Assembly: GCF_024868665.1 (NCBI RefSeq)
Contig: NC_079890.1
Location: forward strand, 38,559,372-38,623,371
Direction: 5' to 3'
Length of the DNA stretch: 64,000 bases
Origin: Triplophysa rosa
Taxonomy: Eukaryota; Chordata; Actinopteri; Cypriniformes; Nemacheilidae
Positions 11,620 through 19,655 of the stretch are shown here, one piece after another. Position 1 is the first letter of the stretch. Each line of letters starts with the position of its first letter. The position numbers and the translations under genes are program-made. Below the pieces are notes generated by a model. The model saw only the letters and a list, made by a program, of their open reading frames with translations. It was not told where the DNA came from and made no database searches.

Positions 11620-12552
11620 CCCTGCCCAACACACAAGCAAGCTCTTCTTCACCGAAAGGCCTCAAACTGAGGATTTAAATGACCTCTTGATAATCTGTGA
11701 CACCTGCCATCATTAATAAACCCAACCCACAATTGACCCTTCGCTAAGCCCCGCCCTCCTTAGTTACTGTTGCTACGCCTGTCAAGCTTTCACGCCTGGC
11801 AAGTGTATTACAGTGTGTATGCACCGGTGTCAGACATTCCCAAGGAGATAATTAGTATTTTTTGGTGAACATGTGAAATATCTGAGAGAGCAAGACAAAA
11901 GGGACTGCAGTGTGCATTCGAGGGATATATCCACGACATAATATGCAACCGATTAGAAAATAATTTAATCAAAATTGAAGCTAAAGCCTATGAATGATAA
12001 CATTCTCCCGCTTATATTTTAGTAGCGCGCTAGTAGTCTAATCTAGGCCTTGGACCTGGCAATGCTGGAGATGCTGAGCCGAGTCATACATCATCAACAA
12101 CACAAACACATTTCCGTCTTGCCTTTAATCATCTTATTTTACGTTCAAATATATGCATTATGAACAAAGAACCGTCATTATTTCCAAGCAATGATGTGCT
12201 GCGTTAGCTAGCTGGCTAACATTAGCGTGCTCTTACCTTGGAGCAAACATATGTGTTTTTGTTAATCCTGTCGACCTTTAGTGGGACATTCTAAAACGCT
12301 TAACGTACCTTAACAGCGATAAAGGAAAACCAAGTTTCTGTCAAATTTTACTTCTAATAAACACATGCTGCTGTCAAAAGAACGAGCTCTTGGTCCGCGG
12401 ATAAAGTGAATATCACGTTAAGCGTTCTCACCATAGAAGTCCATTATAAGAGAAAACAGCTTAACGTGGCTTAGACAAATTTCTGTCATTTTAGTTGTAA
12501 TTAATACTTCAAAAGCCACCGTGCATTGTTGGACTTAATGGTCAGTCCTGCA

Positions 12553-12954
12553 TGCTCAAAAATTTGCACGGAGACGTTCTCCAAAATTAAACAGAAGTTT
12601 TATTATCAGATGTAAAAAGGCTAACAAAGCTTTGGGTTGTCAGTCACTCTCCACACTCTCTCAAAAGCCAACAACCCAGATTATTCAAAAAACACACATA
12701 TTTATTCAGTATTTGACGTCGTTCTCATCTTCTGACTCCTCCTTTTTCTCTGTGGAGTATTGCTCCTTAGCAACCAATCACCGTGAACCAGTTTATCTGA
12801 CTCCGTCCTTCTTTGTTAGTTCCTGTAAAACAACATCTCTCACAACACATGTTTTACATCCTGTGGTCAGTCGCTAGTTTTGGGGAATGTTCCCTAGAGA
12901 CAGTTTCTTTTTGGGGAGTGTTCCCTAGAGACAGTTTCTTGTGGCCGGACAACA
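12553..12954 (-). repeat. Candidate retroviral 3' LTR
   Basis: Read on the minus strand, the segment starts TGTTGTCCGGCC, ends in TTTTTGAGCA (TG...CA), and contains an AATAAAA polyadenylation-type signal about 60 bases before its end. It holds two near-identical CTCTAGGGAACA..CCCCAAAA units. It lies about 100 bases downstream of the retroviral reading frame. No polypurine tract or second LTR was found, so the limits are tentative. Confidence 0.35.
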
Positions 12955-13058
12955 TACCAACATTCTTAACATTCTTTTAGTAAAAAGAAAACACTCAATC
13001 ATCTAATGCTTTTAATTATGTAGCGTTGTTTCTTAATCCTATGATTCATTAAAACACA

Positions 13059-13364
13059 TCACAACTCATGATTATACTTAAAACAAATGCAGTGGATTGA
13101 TTCATAACATTTCTNATATGTTGGTAAATCAGTACATTGTTCTTTAGTTATTAGGTGAAAAATAATTCTGCCATCTTCTTCTTTAGTTACTGCACATTCA
13201 CCTGGTTGTTTGTGTTGGTCAATTACTTTCTCTGTACCATATCGCCGTTTGAACTGTTTAGCTATACCTGCTCCGTATGCACAGTCAGCACTTACACAAT
13301 GTGCCAATGGTTCTGTGTGTGGGCTTGTGAAAATGTCGCCTGTTTTGTGTATAATTTGGAGCTG
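13059..13364 (-). other. TARG1/OARD1-like macro domain, C-terminally incomplete
   Basis: Residues 609-697 of the pol frame show HKTGDIF, AHCVSADCAYGAGIAKQF, a PGECAV stretch and IIFHLITK. This matches the order of ADP-ribose-binding blocks in the OARD1 (TARG1) macro-domain family. The lysine of LITK (residue 682, codon 13145-13143) is at the position of the catalytic lysine known in that family. The frame stops about 27 residues after it, before the segment that should carry the catalytic aspartate, so this half-domain is probably inactive. Family assignment is from motif order, not from a search. Confidence 0.7.
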
Positions 13365-15188
13365 TTGGTGTTGTCCAGTGGCAATTTCAGTGTCTGTTTT
13401 ACCGTCACTCTGTGTATCCTCCCTCTCTTGGACCTGAGTCCTCAGGTCCAAACCAGTGTCAGCAAGAGACCTAGAAGGGGGGTCACAAGCTACACAGGAT
13501 GTTAAATGGAACCAAGTATCTCCCTTTCCTTGTAGTTGCACACAGTGTGAGGTGCGAGCTGTTACTCGGTGGGGTTGTGACCACCGTGGTTCACTCCATT
13601 TTCTGCGGAAAGTTATGATCCTTACCCAGTCAGCTGTGACTGGGGTGAGTGGTTCAGCTGGAACAGGGGTTACCTGATGGGAAAAGGTTCGAATCAGAGC
13701 AGTTAGTTTATCAAAATACACAGTATGTGACAATGGCTGCACGCTGTCCTCTCTTAACGCCGTGGTTGGGCCTGGAAATTGACGACCTGTAAGCAATTCA
13801 AAAGGTGTAAAGCCAGAGATCCTGTTAACAGAAGAACGAATAGACATGAGAGCAATGGGTAGGGCTGACAGCCAGTTCAATTTAGTCTGTGCACAGATTT
13901 TAGCCAATTTCAGTTTAATCGTCAGGTTAAGGCGTTCAATCTTACCTTGGCTAGCTGGATGGTAAACGGAACCATACGCATGTGTGAGGCCTAGAGCCTG
14001 TTCAACCACTTTCAGATGTTCATTTTTAAAATGGCTACCGTTATCGGATCTGATACGGCGTGGGAACCCGTAGTGGGGTATGTATTGATTGATTAAACAC
14101 TTTATCACAGCCGTACTATCCTCTCGGCCGACAGGATATGCTTCTGGCCAACCAGTGAAATAATCAACAATCACCAAAACATAGCGTTTGCCATGTACCC
14201 GTGCGATCATATCTGTGAAGTCTATCACAATTTCTTCCCCCGGACCAGACGTTAATGGGAAAGAGCCTTTTTGAGGCTTGATGCTGGGTTTTACATTGTG
14301 TTCCTGACAGATACAACAACTTGTCACATGACCTGACACCATGGACTGCAAAAACGGATGCCACCAATGTTCGAGAGCTCTCATCATTTGCTTGTCACTC
14401 ACATGGCTTACCCCATGAGCTTGAGTCAAGATTGAACCGGTCAGAGAGGCAGGCAATGCCGGACGTCCGTCTGGCGCTTGCCATAGACCATCTGGCGAGC
14501 ATATACCTCCATGCTGCAACCAGACTGATTGTTCTTCAGGGGCAGATTTCTGTTGTTCTTTAACCAAATATTCTCGAGTGAAATGGGGCAAAAGATCACT
14601 GCAGGCTCTATCTGATATCACCACCTGCTGAGTTGCTACATAGCCAGCTGCAGTTCTGGCAGCTAGATCAGCTGCATTGTTACCATCAGTGATGGGGCAG
14701 TCACTTTTGGAGTGACCTGGACACTTAATTACTGCCACTTCTGTGGGTATCATCAGAGCCTCTAAAAGGTCTCTGGCTTCGCATGCATGCGTGATTGGTC
14801 GACCTGAGGATGTGATAAAACCACACCTCTGCCATAAGGGCAATTCAACATGGACAGCTGTCACTACATAAGCGGAATCGGAATAAATATTTACACGGTT
14901 CTCACCAGCATAGTGGAGGGCTCTTGCTACTGCTATCATTTCAGCTCTTTGTGCTGACTGCTTTCCTTCCAATTTCCCTGACTCCCTGGTCATGAAATTA
15001 CTTCCTTGCTGTTCCACCACGGCATAGGCTGCCTTCAGACTTCCATCCTCTGCTCTGAAACAACAACCATCTGTGAACAATGTCATAACTGGCGGTGGGG
15101 TTGTCAATGGCACTGCAGACAGATCTTCTCTTACTTTGGATGCTCTCTCGGTGATGGGTGCACAGTCATGCGGCTGTCCATCTCCCAT
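13059..15188 (-). CDS. Endogenous retrovirus pol fragment: RNase H, integrase, macro domain
   Basis: An open frame of 709 codons starts seven bases from the assembly gap, so the upstream protease and reverse transcriptase parts are not represented. RNase H occupies about residues 33-185 (acidic residues D40, E83, D104, D174). The integrase follows: an HHCC zinc module (H258, H262, C291, C294), then catalytic D323, D382 and E418 with 35 residues between the last two. A basic C-terminal region near 515-550 (EPRWSQPHRV) resembles gammaretrovirus-like integrases. From residue 609 the frame continues into a macro-domain-like segment. No env frame is seen before the candidate LTR. One codon (residue 692) contains an N. 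It is an old genomic copy; whether it is transcribed is unknown. Confidence 0.85.
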   Translation of the reverse strand: MGDGQPHDCAPITERASKVREDLSAVPLTTPPPVMTLFTDGCCFRAEDGSLKAAYAVVEQQGSNFMTRESGKLEGKQSAQRAEMIAVARALHYAGENRVNIYSDSAYVVTAVHVELPLWQRCGFITSSGRPITHACEARDLLEALMIPTEVAVIKCPGHSKSDCPITDGNNAADLAARTAAGYVATQQVVISDRACSDLLPHFTREYLVKEQQKSAPEEQSVWLQHGGICSPDGLWQAPDGRPALPASLTGSILTQAHGVSHVSDKQMMRALEHWWHPFLQSMVSGHVTSCCICQEHNVKPSIKPQKGSFPLTSGPGEEIVIDFTDMIARVHGKRYVLVIVDYFTGWPEAYPVGREDSTAVIKCLINQYIPHYGFPRRIRSDNGSHFKNEHLKVVEQALGLTHAYGSVYHPASQGKIERLNLTIKLKLAKICAQTKLNWLSALPIALMSIRSSVNRISGFTPFELLTGRQFPGPTTALREDSVQPLSHTVYFDKLTALIRTFSHQVTPVPAEPLTPVTADWVRIITFRRKWSEPRWSQPHRVTARTSHCVQLQGKGDTWFHLTSCVACDPPSRSLADTGLDLRTQVQEREDTQSDGKTDTEIATGQHQQLQIIHKTGDIFTSPHTEPLAHCVSADCAYGAGIAKQFKRRYGTEKVIDQHKQPGECAVTKEEDGRIIFHLITKEQCTDLPTYXKCYESIHCICFKYNHEL

Positions 15189-15194
15189 CAGATC

Positions 15195-15294
15195 NNNNNN
15201 NNNNNNNNNNNNNNNNNNNNNNNNNNNNNNNNNNNNNNNNNNNNNNNNNNNNNNNNNNNNNNNNNNNNNNNNNNNNNNNNNNNNNNNNNNNNNN
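15195..15294. other. Assembly gap (100 N)
   Basis: Exactly 100 N bases, the usual placeholder for a gap of unknown size. It removes the 5' part of the retroviral pol and anything further upstream. Confidence 0.99.
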
Positions 15295-15847
15295 TGTAAT
15301 TTCTGAGCACGTATAGATGTATTTTACATGTTTTTACATGTATAGAGCACTGTTTTTCACCACAGTTATGAATGCACTTGATAAAATACCTAAAAAGTAT
15401 TGAGAAGTATTCATAGGAACATTAGTACATAGATGGGTTGATCTGAAATCATATTCAATAAGAATAATTCCATATAAGTAGGTTTATGATGATAATTTGA
15501 TTATTTGAAGAAGAATTGATGATTTAATGACACAATCTGTACCTGTAACCAATGATTGTTCATATAAATGCACTTAATGTCACTTTAAGCATGTTTAAAG
15601 CACATTTGAGCACAATGAAACAAGGTAAAATCCAGTGATGTTTTTAGAGGCCTAAAGTTTGAAGCCTGTTGTGCTCTCTCTGAAACCTGGGGATTTTCCA
15701 CTGTTTAAAAGTAACCATGATTACGCACGTACGCCACGTTGTCTCGTATGGAGACCATGGCTTGTTTGGTGGTCTCGTGTAGTAACCATTGTATGCAAAT
15801 TATTTTAAAAATGATGTAATAAATAACATTTCTTTTCTGTGTGACTC

Positions 15848-15883
<36 letters not shown>

Positions 15884-16300
15884 GACTTAGTTAAATTTAT
15901 GGTTCCAACCCCCACTTATCCTGTCTCACTCCGCTTGCCACAGTAACTTTTCACTGAGTAAAATAGCAAGCACATGATAAAAGCACACAGCTTAATGATT
16001 TAAAGAAAGAAAACACTTATTGATTATATTGATAATTAAATCATACTTTTAACTGAAAAATATTTCCACAGCATTGTGTTAAAAAGTGCAGTAGGGGCCT
16101 CTTTATGCCCTGTCTGAAACCAATATTAAGAAATGAGGCTGAAAGGCAATCAAGTTGCTAACTCCTGGCTTCAGTGTTGTTACATCGAGCTGAATAGCCT
16201 GTGGAGCAAACTAGAACAAAACAGCACAAATGTTTCTAAAAGTTCTGATAAAAAGGGACAGAAATATAAATGAGATGATACAGTGCGTTGTTTAGGTACG
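15295..16300. other. Non-coding interior of nested element, with (GT)n at 15850-15882
   Basis: No coding frame or recognisable LTR is seen between the gap and the right arm of the inverted-repeat element. A GT microsatellite is present. Confidence 0.5.
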
Positions 16301-16769
16301 TTACGCCACGTTAAGCTGTTTCCTTATAATGGACTTCTATGGGGGAGAAAACGCTTAACGTGATATTATTCACTTTATCCGCGGAACAAGAGCTCGATCT
16401 TTTGACAGCAGCAAGTGTTTAACACAAGGAAGGTTTGACAGAAATTTGGTTTTCCATGATCGCTGTTTGGGTACGTTAAGCTACGCTAAGCGTTTTTCAC
16501 TTTAAGCGTTTTAGAATGTCCCACATTTAGTTGTGAATGAGGCCTTCCACACTGCTTGATCCACGTCCGGCATTTCTCCCCTTGGGTTTTAGGTTTCGGG
16601 AAGGTAAAAAATTCCACCACCCCGTCCAAACTTTTAGGATACTGGCTATCAGATTTACACAATCCATACGCACAACGCTTCGGCATGTTTCCCTCGCTCG
16701 AAAGCTTGACAGACCTCCCGTGCCTAGTTGCTAAACCACGATTGGCCTGTGGCGGTTTTCTATGGGATT

Positions 16770-17220
16770 CCTTTTGTGCCAATAAAAATGAACGCAAACG
16801 TTTAAAAAACGAACAAAAATATACAATGAGAAAGAAAAAAAACACTTTGATAATGAAAACAATAAACTCAGTTGCAAGAATGTGACATGATTTCTTAACA
16901 ATTTTCTAAGTTTCGTTTTTGCAAATAATAGTTTTGAATTCGCTGCTAGATTTTTCATTTGCGCTTTCCGAGTTTTCGTTTACGCTTCGCAATTTTTCGT
17001 TCGCCTTTCTGGCACAAACTCACGTGTGGGTGGGATTTATGGCCACTTTACTCTCATTGGTTAGTGAGATTTGGATTGACAGCTCCCTGACCAGGAAGTC
17101 GATACTGAAGACAGTGCAGCGGATTAAGAGAGCAATCTTCTTGCGGTTTTCTGTATAGTATTGTTTTAGTGTTTATACTTAAATTACTTTCTTCTTTTGT
17201 AAGTATATTAGCAGGGTTGC
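16770..17220 (+). repeat. Left arm of a long inverted repeat (pairs with 19215-19655)
   Basis: Contains CAAGAATGTGACATGATTTC, GCAAATAATAGTTTTGAATTC and GACAGCTCCCTGACCAGGAAG, all found in inverted order in the partner arm. Similarity is high over about 450 bp. Confidence 0.8.
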
Positions 17221-17586
17221 CAACTTTCACGCACTTAAAAGTAGGACACGCTTCCAGGCTCTATCACGCCGTAACAACAAGCCAACTTCGAGCAAATACA
17301 GGATAGATAACGTTAGCCATATTCACATGCAACTTTACGTGGGTTTAGAGGCCGTCAAGACAGCAGTCTATAATTTATCATTTCAATGATATCAGGAAAA
17401 CGAGATGCCTAGTGAGTTTTGAGGAGATATACAATAAAGTGTTATGCTTCCAGTCATATTTATAATTTATACATTATAATCGTGGTGGCATTTTATGTAT
17501 TGTTTCTATCTTTAAATGTTTGTTTATAGTTTAAGAAGTCTCTCTTCTGCTTTTCTTTAACCTGTTTTATGTAGGTGTGTAAATAC

Positions 17587-18533
17587 TAGTGCTGTCAATC
17601 GATTAAAAAAATTAATCGGATTAATCACACATTTTTTCTGTGATTAATCACGATTAGTCGCACATAACAATTATATTTTAAAATATACTTTTACATTTTA
17701 ATAATTTCACATTTAATCTTCAAATTGATGTAGAAACAACATATTTCTTTAACAGCATCATTTTATGAAAGCTAACATTTTGATATTAGTATTGTAACTG
17801 ATGTCTCTATTAAATTGATTATTTTAACATTAATTATAGCCATTCAACAGTATAATTGAGAGCTCATGTAGGAAATTGAAGGACACTTTACAGTCTTTAA
17901 TGCTAAATTATAAAATTAAATGCAGAAGAATTCTCATTAAAGCTATAAAATCACATTGATTTCTTCTTTTATTTTGTTCTTTGATTAACATTAGTGACAG
18001 GAGTCAGAGCAGCACGTTTAAGAGCGCGGCCCCTTTAAGAGCTGTCTCGGTACGCAGATCTGACCGTCACCGCACTCCCATTTTCACAACTCTTTGCCTT
18101 CATTTAAGATTTTATTTTACACTTTGAAGTCTGTGCTTAAGAAAATGCTCGACAAAACGGGCTTTCTGACATAATCTTGTGTGGTTTTATCCATTCAAGC
18201 ACGAAAGAGAACTTAACACGGATGCGCTGTCTGACAGAGATTCACCGACGCAGCCTTCAGCCCGTTACTGTACACACCAGACTGGACCTCTCATTGCGTT
18301 TTGCCGCGTCCCACAGTTTAGAAGCTGTCGATCTTCATTGAACGCGTCAAAGCAACTGTTTCAAATCGCGCTTAAGTGGTTTAAAAGCCTGTACACGAAT
18401 AAGAGCGTGATTACATAATGTAACGCTAGACAAAGGATGTCAAAACAAACGGATGCTGCGTTAATTGCGATAAATATTTTCTCACGCGTTAATTTGAAAA
18501 AATTAATCGCATGCGTTAACGTTGACAGCCCTA
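17587..18533. mobile_element. 947-bp hAT-type element with perfect 8-bp duplication
   Basis: It starts TAGTGCTGTCAATCGATTAA and ends GCGTTAACGTTGACAGCCCTA, which are imperfect inverted ends. GTAAATAC flanks both sides (17579-17586 and 18534-18541). It inserted into the loop of the long inverted repeat, so it is younger than that structure. No transposase is encoded. Confidence 0.85.
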
Positions 18534-18804
18534 GTAAATACATAATGAAATTGTTGTTTGCAAGAGGCAGACTAAATTAATAAAACATTCTAAAGGCCTC
18601 TAATTGTGTCACCTTATGAATGTGTTTTGTTGTAGCGTTTAAAAAACATAAATGTCATTTGAATGTATTGGTAGTGTTTTATGAGGTGTGTTTTCTGTGA
18701 ATGTAAAGAAAGGGGTGTAATACTGTACATTCACCATGAGTTTAAAAAGAAAGATACTTGATTTATAAGTGGACTTAATTCTTTAAAAGGAGACTGTATG
18801 CACG

Positions 18805-19195
18805 AGCGACATCGTCATCATCCTCCTCAGCTGGACACAAGTCACCCTCAGGTACATTTATGTAACCGAGATAATAAAATCGCTAAAAGTTTATCTGTAC
18901 AGTAACTATGCAGCAATGTTTTCATTTAGCACGTTTTTCTCACAACCCAATAATCTGTAACATGTCTTTATTGGATGTTATAATGCAAGTTGTTCGTTCC
19001 TTTTTAAGAAAATAATCTTACAGTCCATAAAATAATACCTGACAGAAAGTATAAAGCACACAATGAACGAGCTAAGTAAAGACAGAATTGCTACTGTACA
19101 GGAATAAAACTTTTAGCGATTTTCTTTATTATCTGAATTACATTCATTTACCTGAGGCTGAGGAGGACGATGATGAGGAAGACGCTTGGATCCAC
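18805..19195. repeat. Inner inverted repeat in the loop of the larger one
   Basis: About 18805-18910 (TCATCATCCTCCTCAG, CCTCAGGTA, ATCGCTAAAAG) and about 19080-19190 carry the same blocks inverted. It has no coding role that I can see. Confidence 0.6.
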
Positions 19196-19214
19196 ACCGC
19201 GCATGACTTACCAA

Positions 19215-19655
19215 CTTCAAATACCAATTACTAATATACTAACTAAATAAGAAAGTAGTTTTAAGTACAAACAATAAAGATAACAGCATGCAGATCGTTC
19301 TCTAAGATTCGTTGCACTGTACTGTCTTCAGTATCGACTTCCTTGTCAGGGAGCTGTCAATCAAAAACTCACTAGCCAATCAGCGTAAAGCGGCCATAAA
19401 TCCTGCCTACACGTGCGATTTGTGCCAGAAAGGCGAACGAAAAATTCAGAAGCGTAAACGAAAACTCGGAAAGCGCAAATGAAAAATCTAGCAGCGAATT
19501 CAAAACTATTATTTGCAAAAACGAAACTTAGAAAATTGTTAAGAAACCATGTCACATTCTTGCAACTGAGTTTATTGTTTTCATTATCAAAGTGTTTTTT
19601 TTCTTTCTCATTGTATATTTTTGTTCGTTTTTTAAAAGTTTGTGTTCATTTTCGG
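19215..19655 (-). repeat. Right arm of the long inverted repeat
   Basis: Inverted partner of 16770-17220. It abuts the outer terminal repeat at 19654-19674. Confidence 0.8.

What the first reader, a model, noticed from the sequence alone, without database searches (positions are those of the whole stretch)
13059..13364. Endogenous retrovirus pol frame runs on into a TARG1/OARD1-like macro domain
Seen: one uninterrupted minus-strand frame reads RNase H, HHCC-DD35E integrase and then blocks (GDIF, AHCVSADCAYGAGIA, LITK) in the order of the OARD1 family. Known: macro domains bind or remove ADP-ribose and occur in some RNA viruses (alphaviruses, coronaviruses), but I know of no standard retrovirus with one in pol. 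Inferred: this lineage captured a host-type macro domain at the 3' end of pol, roughly where env would be expected. This copy ends early and lacks the segment with the second catalytic residue.
Basis: partly seen in the sequence, partly recalled or inferred. Interest (0 to 1): 0.88.

Follow-up and report, generated by a model that had tools for sequence, protein, structure and literature searches.

The report
Fish retrovirus with ADP-ribose eraser domain
A family of fish endogenous retroviruses ends its polymerase protein with a copy of a host-type enzyme domain that in cells strips ADP-ribose marks from proteins; the domain was preserved by selection while the virus spread, which suggests the retroviruses used it, perhaps against a host defence.

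Summary
One minus-strand frame reads RNase H, integrase, then a TARG1/OARD1-type macro domain (human TARG1, E=2.8e-22). It is not a one-off: of 117 integrase loci of this lineage detected in the same genome, 107 have the macro domain within 1.5 kb. In the 47 copies scored as complete, of 56 examined, the positions of human K84 and D125 hold K and D. Selection is as strong as on integrase (dN/dS 0.17 and 0.16). The 17 retroviral domains in the tree form one clade beside vertebrate OARD1. The host gene has three introns inside the domain, the viral copies none: capture from spliced mRNA fits best.

The macro domain lies between integrase and env, not in env's place. This copy's 'early end' is probably an assembly join: the lone N at 13115 sits exactly where macro abuts LTR sequence. 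And macro-domain ORFs in fish retroviruses are already in print (Basta et al. 2009, as cited in a 2016 review; original not held). The TARG1 type, in-frame Pol fusion, single capture and selection may be new. Activity and role are inferred.

The parts
12523..12526 (-). Target-site duplication ATGC, 3' side
   Evidence: ATGC follows the LTR end and also precedes the 5' LTR start
12527..13114 (-). 3' LTR, about position 227 to its end (775), ending CCAACA; its first 52 bases plus the stop are read as the tail of the 709-aa frame
   Evidence: Matches the LTR of a sister copy (91.3%, LTR 229-775; K2P 0.020)
13115..13115 (.). Single N: probable assembly join between macro domain and LTR
   Evidence: 29 of 29 other loci of the first batch match the window up to 13116; 14 of 29 match again from 13105-13120 on; 464-1102 bp lie between in 13 of those 14, the 14th being inverted
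13116..13361 (-). TARG1/OARD1-type macro domain, first part, through the LITK block (K84 equivalent)
   Evidence: Human TARG1 E=2.8e-22; other copies
13362..13481 (-). Linker between integrase and macro domain, same frame
   Evidence: Open frame; present in the sister copies
13482..14453 (-). Integrase: zinc-binding 14292-14453, catalytic core 13956-14246, weak MLVIN_C-like end 13482-13634
   Evidence: Pfam; PDB best PFV integrase 1.3e-25
14646..15086 (-). RNase H
   Evidence: PF00075 2.7e-25
15195..15294 (.). 100-N assembly gap; the rest of pol and gag would lie here
   Evidence: 14901-15194 matches the pol of a sister copy at 88.8%
15295..15822 (.). Sequence between the gap and the 5' LTR part that matches neither of two sister LTRs; unexplained
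   Evidence: No match
15823..16070 (-). 5' LTR, positions 1-237, starting TGTGG
   Evidence: 89.1% to the LTR of a sister copy
16071..16074 (-). Target-site duplication ATGC, 5' side

Best explanation
The window holds one provirus (12527-16070, 4-bp target duplication ATGC) of a multi-copy class I (gamma/epsilon-like) endogenous retrovirus lineage. Pol reads protease, reverse transcriptase, RNase H, integrase and then, in frame, a TARG1-type macro domain; a separate env gene follows. The domain was most likely captured once, from a spliced OARD1-type mRNA, before the sampled sublineages split, and was kept under purifying selection while the virus spread. Proposed working (inferred): as the last part of Gag-Pol it enters the virion with integrase and removes ADP-ribose from proteins in the early, pre-integration phase, undoing antiviral or DNA-damage ADP-ribosylation by host PARPs. 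Shown: order and frame, number of copies, conserved K84/D125 positions, low dN/dS, one clade in the tree, no introns. Inferred: packaging, enzyme activity, target and benefit. I put the anatomy and family-wide presence at about 0.95, single capture from an OARD1 mRNA at about 0.8, and the eraser function at about 0.55.
For: TARG1 match. Macro within 1.5 kb of 107 of 117 lineage integrase loci; 0 of 19 loci with 38-43% integrase identity (the 44% cut was set after seeing the gap in the list). Complete domain in 47 of 56 loci examined; K and D in 47 of 47. dN/dS macro 0.171, integrase end 0.164 in the same copies. Retroviral domains one clade 97/91, with OARD1 98/98; integrase tree puts the 15 macro bearers on one side of a branch, 98/98. 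Three GT-AG introns in the host gene, none in the viral copies. A sister family member passes Pfam's Macro cut-off (23.9 against 22 bits). RT nearest to MLV-type RT in the PDB; env piece PF00429 and Syncytin-1. gag end, TGA, then protease in the same frame in one copy.
Against: No activity, transcript or particle was tested. Integrase alone is nearest to a foamy virus in the PDB. An AU test does not reject the retroviral domains grouping with phage TARG1 proteins (p=0.081), and tree joins of long branches were flagged. Loci were found by protein similarity and filtered for completeness, which favours low dN and conserved motifs. Within subfamily A1 macro dN/dS is higher (0.309) than for integrase (0.168), and the single usable B pair gives 0.56 at dS 0.033. 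The gag-pol stop was seen in one copy only. No other fish genome could be searched. Env was not examined in lineage B.
Confidence: 0.75

Rival explanations
1. The domain is a reader, not an eraser: it binds ADP-ribose or PAR, for example to bring the pre-integration complex to PARylated chromatin.
For: It is fused behind integrase; the fold alone allows binding without hydrolysis (recalled).
Against: Both positions that TARG1 needs for catalysis (role recalled) are kept in 47 of 47 scored copies, partly a product of the completeness filter.
Confidence: 0.2
2. Chance fusion of a host gene fragment to one defective provirus.
For: The window copy alone could look like this.
Against: 107 of 117 lineage loci carry it; purifying selection between subfamilies; shared by lineages with 53-63% integrase identity to the window.
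Confidence: 0.01
3. The truncation in the window is a real deletion from inside the macro domain to inside the 3' LTR, not an assembly join.
For: Three other loci end the domain early in their own sequence (L028, L029, L030), and an ambiguous base could fall on a deletion point.
Against: The only single N of the window lies exactly on the break; another locus (L030) has its single N at an inversion. Of five single Ns in 99 kb two are at breaks and three could not be judged.
Confidence: 0.12
4. The donor was a phage or bacterial TARG1 gene, or another organism, rather than a vertebrate OARD1 mRNA.
For: Free-standing TARG1-like genes occur in phages (9 of 50,697 records) and viral contigs; AU p=0.081.
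Against: Tree support 98/98 for the group with fish and human OARD1; identity to the fish gene 44-48% against 32-40% for the phage matches.
Confidence: 0.08

Closest known systems
[quoted passage not shown] 2009, J Virol 83:10152; known here only through Naville and Volff 2016, PMC4977317, passages read)
   Same: Class I fish ERV carrying a macro domain of cellular kind
   Different: Reported there as additional ORFs; subfamily, place in the genome and frame are not stated in the review. Here it is a TARG1-type domain in the pol frame. Whether it is the same lineage could not be checked
Human and fish TARG1/OARD1
   Same: Fold, catalytic positions, 44-48% identity to the fish gene
   Different: Free-standing, intron-bearing host gene; here the C-terminal part of Pol
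Macrodomains of coronaviruses, alphaviruses and hepatitis E virus (passages of PMC10499221, PMC7232374, PMC7729036)
   Same: Viral use of the fold, which counters host ADP-ribosylation in those viruses
   Different: Other macro subfamilies; made inside the infected cell as nonstructural proteins (recalled), not linked to integrase
Retroviral dUTPase in the pol region of some lentiviruses and betaretroviruses (recalled)
   Same: Host enzyme domain built into retroviral polyproteins
   Different: Different enzyme, fold and position

Membership tests
TARG1/OARD1 macro domains | Sequence kinship with TARG1 above other macro proteins | tested here: met
   2.8e-22 against 0.068 for the next macro protein; tree
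TARG1/OARD1 macro domains | Catalytic K84 and D125 (roles recalled) | tested here: met
   47 of 47 scored copies; in the window itself only the K part is present
TARG1/OARD1 macro domains | ADP-ribosyl hydrolase activity | not testable with these tools
   Needs purified protein
Class I (gamma/epsilon-like) retrovirus | RT nearest to gammaretroviral RT | tested here: met
   MLV-type RT chains 2e-52, ahead of PFV-type and Ty3-type chains; a limited yardstick, since it holds only solved structures
Class I (gamma/epsilon-like) retrovirus | Gamma-type env transmembrane part | tested here: met
   PF00429 2.8e-5; Syncytin-1 1.7e-6; one copy's env piece
Class I (gamma/epsilon-like) retrovirus | 4-bp target duplication, TG...CA LTRs, gag and pol in one frame behind a stop | tested here: met
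   ATGC in the window, GATG and GTAC in two sister copies; TGA between gag end and protease in one copy
Spumavirus (foamy) ERV | RT and env of foamy type | tested here: not met
   Integrase alone hits PFV first, but RT and env do not
Basta-type macro-domain fish ERV | Same macro subfamily, place and lineage as described there | not testable with these tools
   Paper not held; no other fish genome searchable

The most novel reading that the evidence does not exclude
A retroviral lineage that packages, as the last domain of Gag-Pol, an active TARG1-type ADP-ribosyl hydrolase captured once from an old vertebrate OARD1 mRNA: a virion-delivered eraser of ADP-ribose that acts before or at integration, whereas the known viral macrodomains are made only after entry.
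Probability: 0.38. Interest if true: 0.85.

Novelty: new variant of a known kind. Interest (0 to 1): 0.62.

Why it matters
ADP-ribosylation as an antiviral front is studied mostly in coronaviruses and alphaviruses. A retroviral lineage that kept a TARG1-type eraser fused behind integrase would place the same conflict at reverse transcription and integration, and the many natural copies make the idea testable. It would also be a clear case of one gene capture, donor gene and intron loss visible in the same genome.

Tried and rejected
Rejected: chance or one-off fusion. My first LTR boundary (445 bp, starting at 12971): in three of the five LTR pairs compared the match began 362-371 bp further upstream, and the LTR is about 775 bp. 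A foamy-virus reading from the integrase match alone was dropped for RT and env. LTR pairs on C77, C350 and C414 were compared on the short boundary (K2P 0.155, 0.063, 0.005) and not used for dating: no clean full-length pair was seen for them.

Led nowhere: single-sequence scan of prokaryote genomes (48 pattern matches, 0 relatives); the integrase piece in viral contigs (1 pattern match, 0 relatives); NCBIfam for the macro piece; BFVD (3 matches at E<=0.001: an iridovirus, a reovirus-type protein and one without a name). An alignment-based scan of prokaryote genomes gave 6 distant relatives of 32 pattern matches, not used in the tree. Ten paper searches gave one paper that ties macro domains to fish ERVs.

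Full report
What is there. The minus-strand frame 13059-15188 is open for 709 codons. Searched in three pieces it gives RNase H, a retroviral integrase and a stretch without a Pfam match at E<=1. That stretch matches human OARD1/TARG1 at 2.8e-22, the next macro protein at 0.068. A model of the fragment is weak (mean pLDDT 63), yet its best eight PDB matches are all TARG1.

It is a trait of the lineage. In the window's own genome (685 Mb in 1038 contigs) the macro piece has 145 matches and the integrase end 151. Only the best 150 candidates of 718 and 659 were scored, so these are lower bounds. Put together (130 and 150 rows typed in), 117 merged integrase loci with at least 44% identity include 107 with macro sequence within 1.5 kb on the same strand: 94 of 104 at 80% or more, 7 of 7 at 60-80%, 5 of 5 at 50-60%, 1 of 1 at 44-50%. 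The 44% cut was set after seeing the list. Of the 10 without, downstream stretches of six were fetched: three show a weak remnant (about 18-19 bits), one ends after 107 bases at a contig end, two show nothing. All 19 loci at 38-43% lack a macro match. A profile search of ten of these 19, both strands and all frames, found nothing at E<=1; two of the ten hold long N runs. Four positive controls, three of them members of the profile, scored 198-220 bits. In several of those macro-free relatives another open frame overlaps the end of pol.

The domain is complete elsewhere. Of 56 loci examined, 47 passed as complete. The nine dropped are L022 (the window), L028, L029, L030, L048, L061, L063, L074 (frame ends early) and L078 (start motif missing). 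In 47 of 47 the columns of human K84 and D125 hold K and D; completeness was judged partly by a motif next to the D, so that count is somewhat circular. In four copies measured, an env-like ORF begins 167-209 nt after the macro stop. One env piece matches PF00429 (2.8e-5) and Syncytin-1 (1.7e-6). The order is therefore integrase, macro, env, LTR. Env was not looked at in lineage B.

The window copy. The other 29 loci of the first batch all match the window up to 13116, and in 14 of them the right-hand part begins again at 13105-13120, eight of these at 13114. The only N outside the 100-N gap is 13115. In 13 of the 14, 464-1102 bp lie between the flanks; the 14th (L030) is inverted, and its own single N lies at that flip. 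Five single Ns occur in 99 kb of these loci, the window's own included: two at breaks, three not judgeable. The right-hand part is LTR from about position 227 on, just behind a CA repeat (seen at about 15851-15882 in the 5' LTR part). I read the early stop as an assembly join and the last 17 residues as LTR. The provirus is bounded by ATGC on both sides. Sequence 15295-15822 is unexplained.

Selection. Between subfamilies A1 and A2 the macro domain has dN/dS 0.174 (codon bootstrap 0.105-0.292; 418 pairs). In copies where both could be read, macro gives 0.171 (0.105-0.273) and the integrase end 0.164 (0.105-0.229), 170 pairs each. Against the more distant L081: 0.138 (macro, 41 pairs) and 0.124 (integrase, 27 pairs). 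Within A1 macro is 0.309 (0.176-0.586) against 0.168 (0.095-0.252), so young copies are less constrained; the one usable B pair gives 0.56 at dS 0.033. Copies were found by protein similarity, which favours low dN, and pairs are not independent.

Origin. In a tree of 29 proteins the 17 retroviral domains form one clade (97/91), next to fish and human OARD1 (98/98) and apart from eight phage and viral-contig proteins; the program flagged joins of long branches. Holding A alone, or B alone, with OARD1 is rejected (AU 0.014 and 0.008), so one capture is favoured. Holding all retroviral domains with the fish gene to the exclusion of the human one is disfavoured (0.017), and holding them with the phage proteins is not rejected (0.081). 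With only two vertebrate sequences the donor and date stay open. An integrase tree has all 15 macro bearers on one side of a branch from 10 macro-free relatives (98/98). The host oard1 gene lies on contig C21; three GT-AG introns fall within the domain. The viral copies read through these places without a break, which fits capture of spliced RNA.

Age. LTR pairs of two sister copies with matching target duplications differ by K2P 0.0039 (769 nt) and 0.0223 (774 nt), or about 0.5-1 and 2.8-5.6 million years at an assumed 2-4e-9 per site per year (a passage of PMC6001957, uses 1.9-2.4e-9 for lamprey). The capture is far older: the lineages share 53-63% in the integrase end with the window and 49-58% in macro with each other. 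The window copy itself was not dated.

Mechanism. In one sister copy the gag end has a zinc knuckle, then TGA, then protease in the same frame. Readthrough would put the macro domain into the virion with integrase; this is inferred from gammaretroviruses. That TARG1 removes ADP-ribose from acidic residues through K84 and D125 is recalled. Viral macrodomains counter host ADP-ribosylation (abstract and passages of PMC7232374). Passages of PMC7729036 link PARP13 to retroviral restriction, and its reference list names a 1996 paper reporting that PARP inhibition blocks retroviral infection (title only seen). The likeliest role here is an early-phase eraser; nothing about activity was tested.

Prior work. 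Naville and Volff 2016 (PMC4977317, passages) state that some epsilon-like fish sequences include additional ORFs such as CNPase or macro-domain proteins, citing Basta et al. 2009, which is not held. PMC10499221 cites that paper for the evolutionary kinship of viral and cellular macrodomains (passages). Term searches within PMC8672886, PMC9967133, PMC7599744, PMC6001957, PMC10221186, PMC7729036 and PMC7232374 showed no retroviral macro domain. The kind is therefore known. Whether the in-frame TARG1 fusion, single capture and selection are in print I cannot tell.

Noticed in passing
12298-12473 and 16302-16481: An inverted pair (about 86% alike) flanks the provirus; the retrovirus may have inserted into a hairpin-like or paired DNA element.
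   Followed up: no
15295-15822: Sequence between the assembly gap and the 5' LTR part that matches neither of two sister LTRs.
   Followed up: partly
16486-16845 and 16785-19652: A 119-aa ORF with a THAP-like match below its cut-off beside a 234-nt inverted repeat, 98% complementary: probably a THAP-type DNA transposon.
   Followed up: no
3-1595: Frame with an endonuclease/exonuclease/phosphatase domain (PF03372, 1.3e-12), probably part of a non-LTR retrotransposon.
   Followed up: no
L004-L007, L015, L016, L018, L019: Full-length TARG1-like proteins in phages and viral contigs, with the K and D blocks kept in most rows.
   Followed up: partly
L096-L101: Macro-free relatives whose pol frame runs roughly 200 aa past the integrase match, overlapping another long frame.
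   Followed up: no
L087, L092: 5' LTRs of sister copies are followed by TGGTGACCCC..., a likely primer binding site; tRNA-Arg is recalled, not tested.
   Followed up: no
L030: A single N at an orientation flip inside a sister copy, a sign of misjoined contigs in this assembly.
   Followed up: yes
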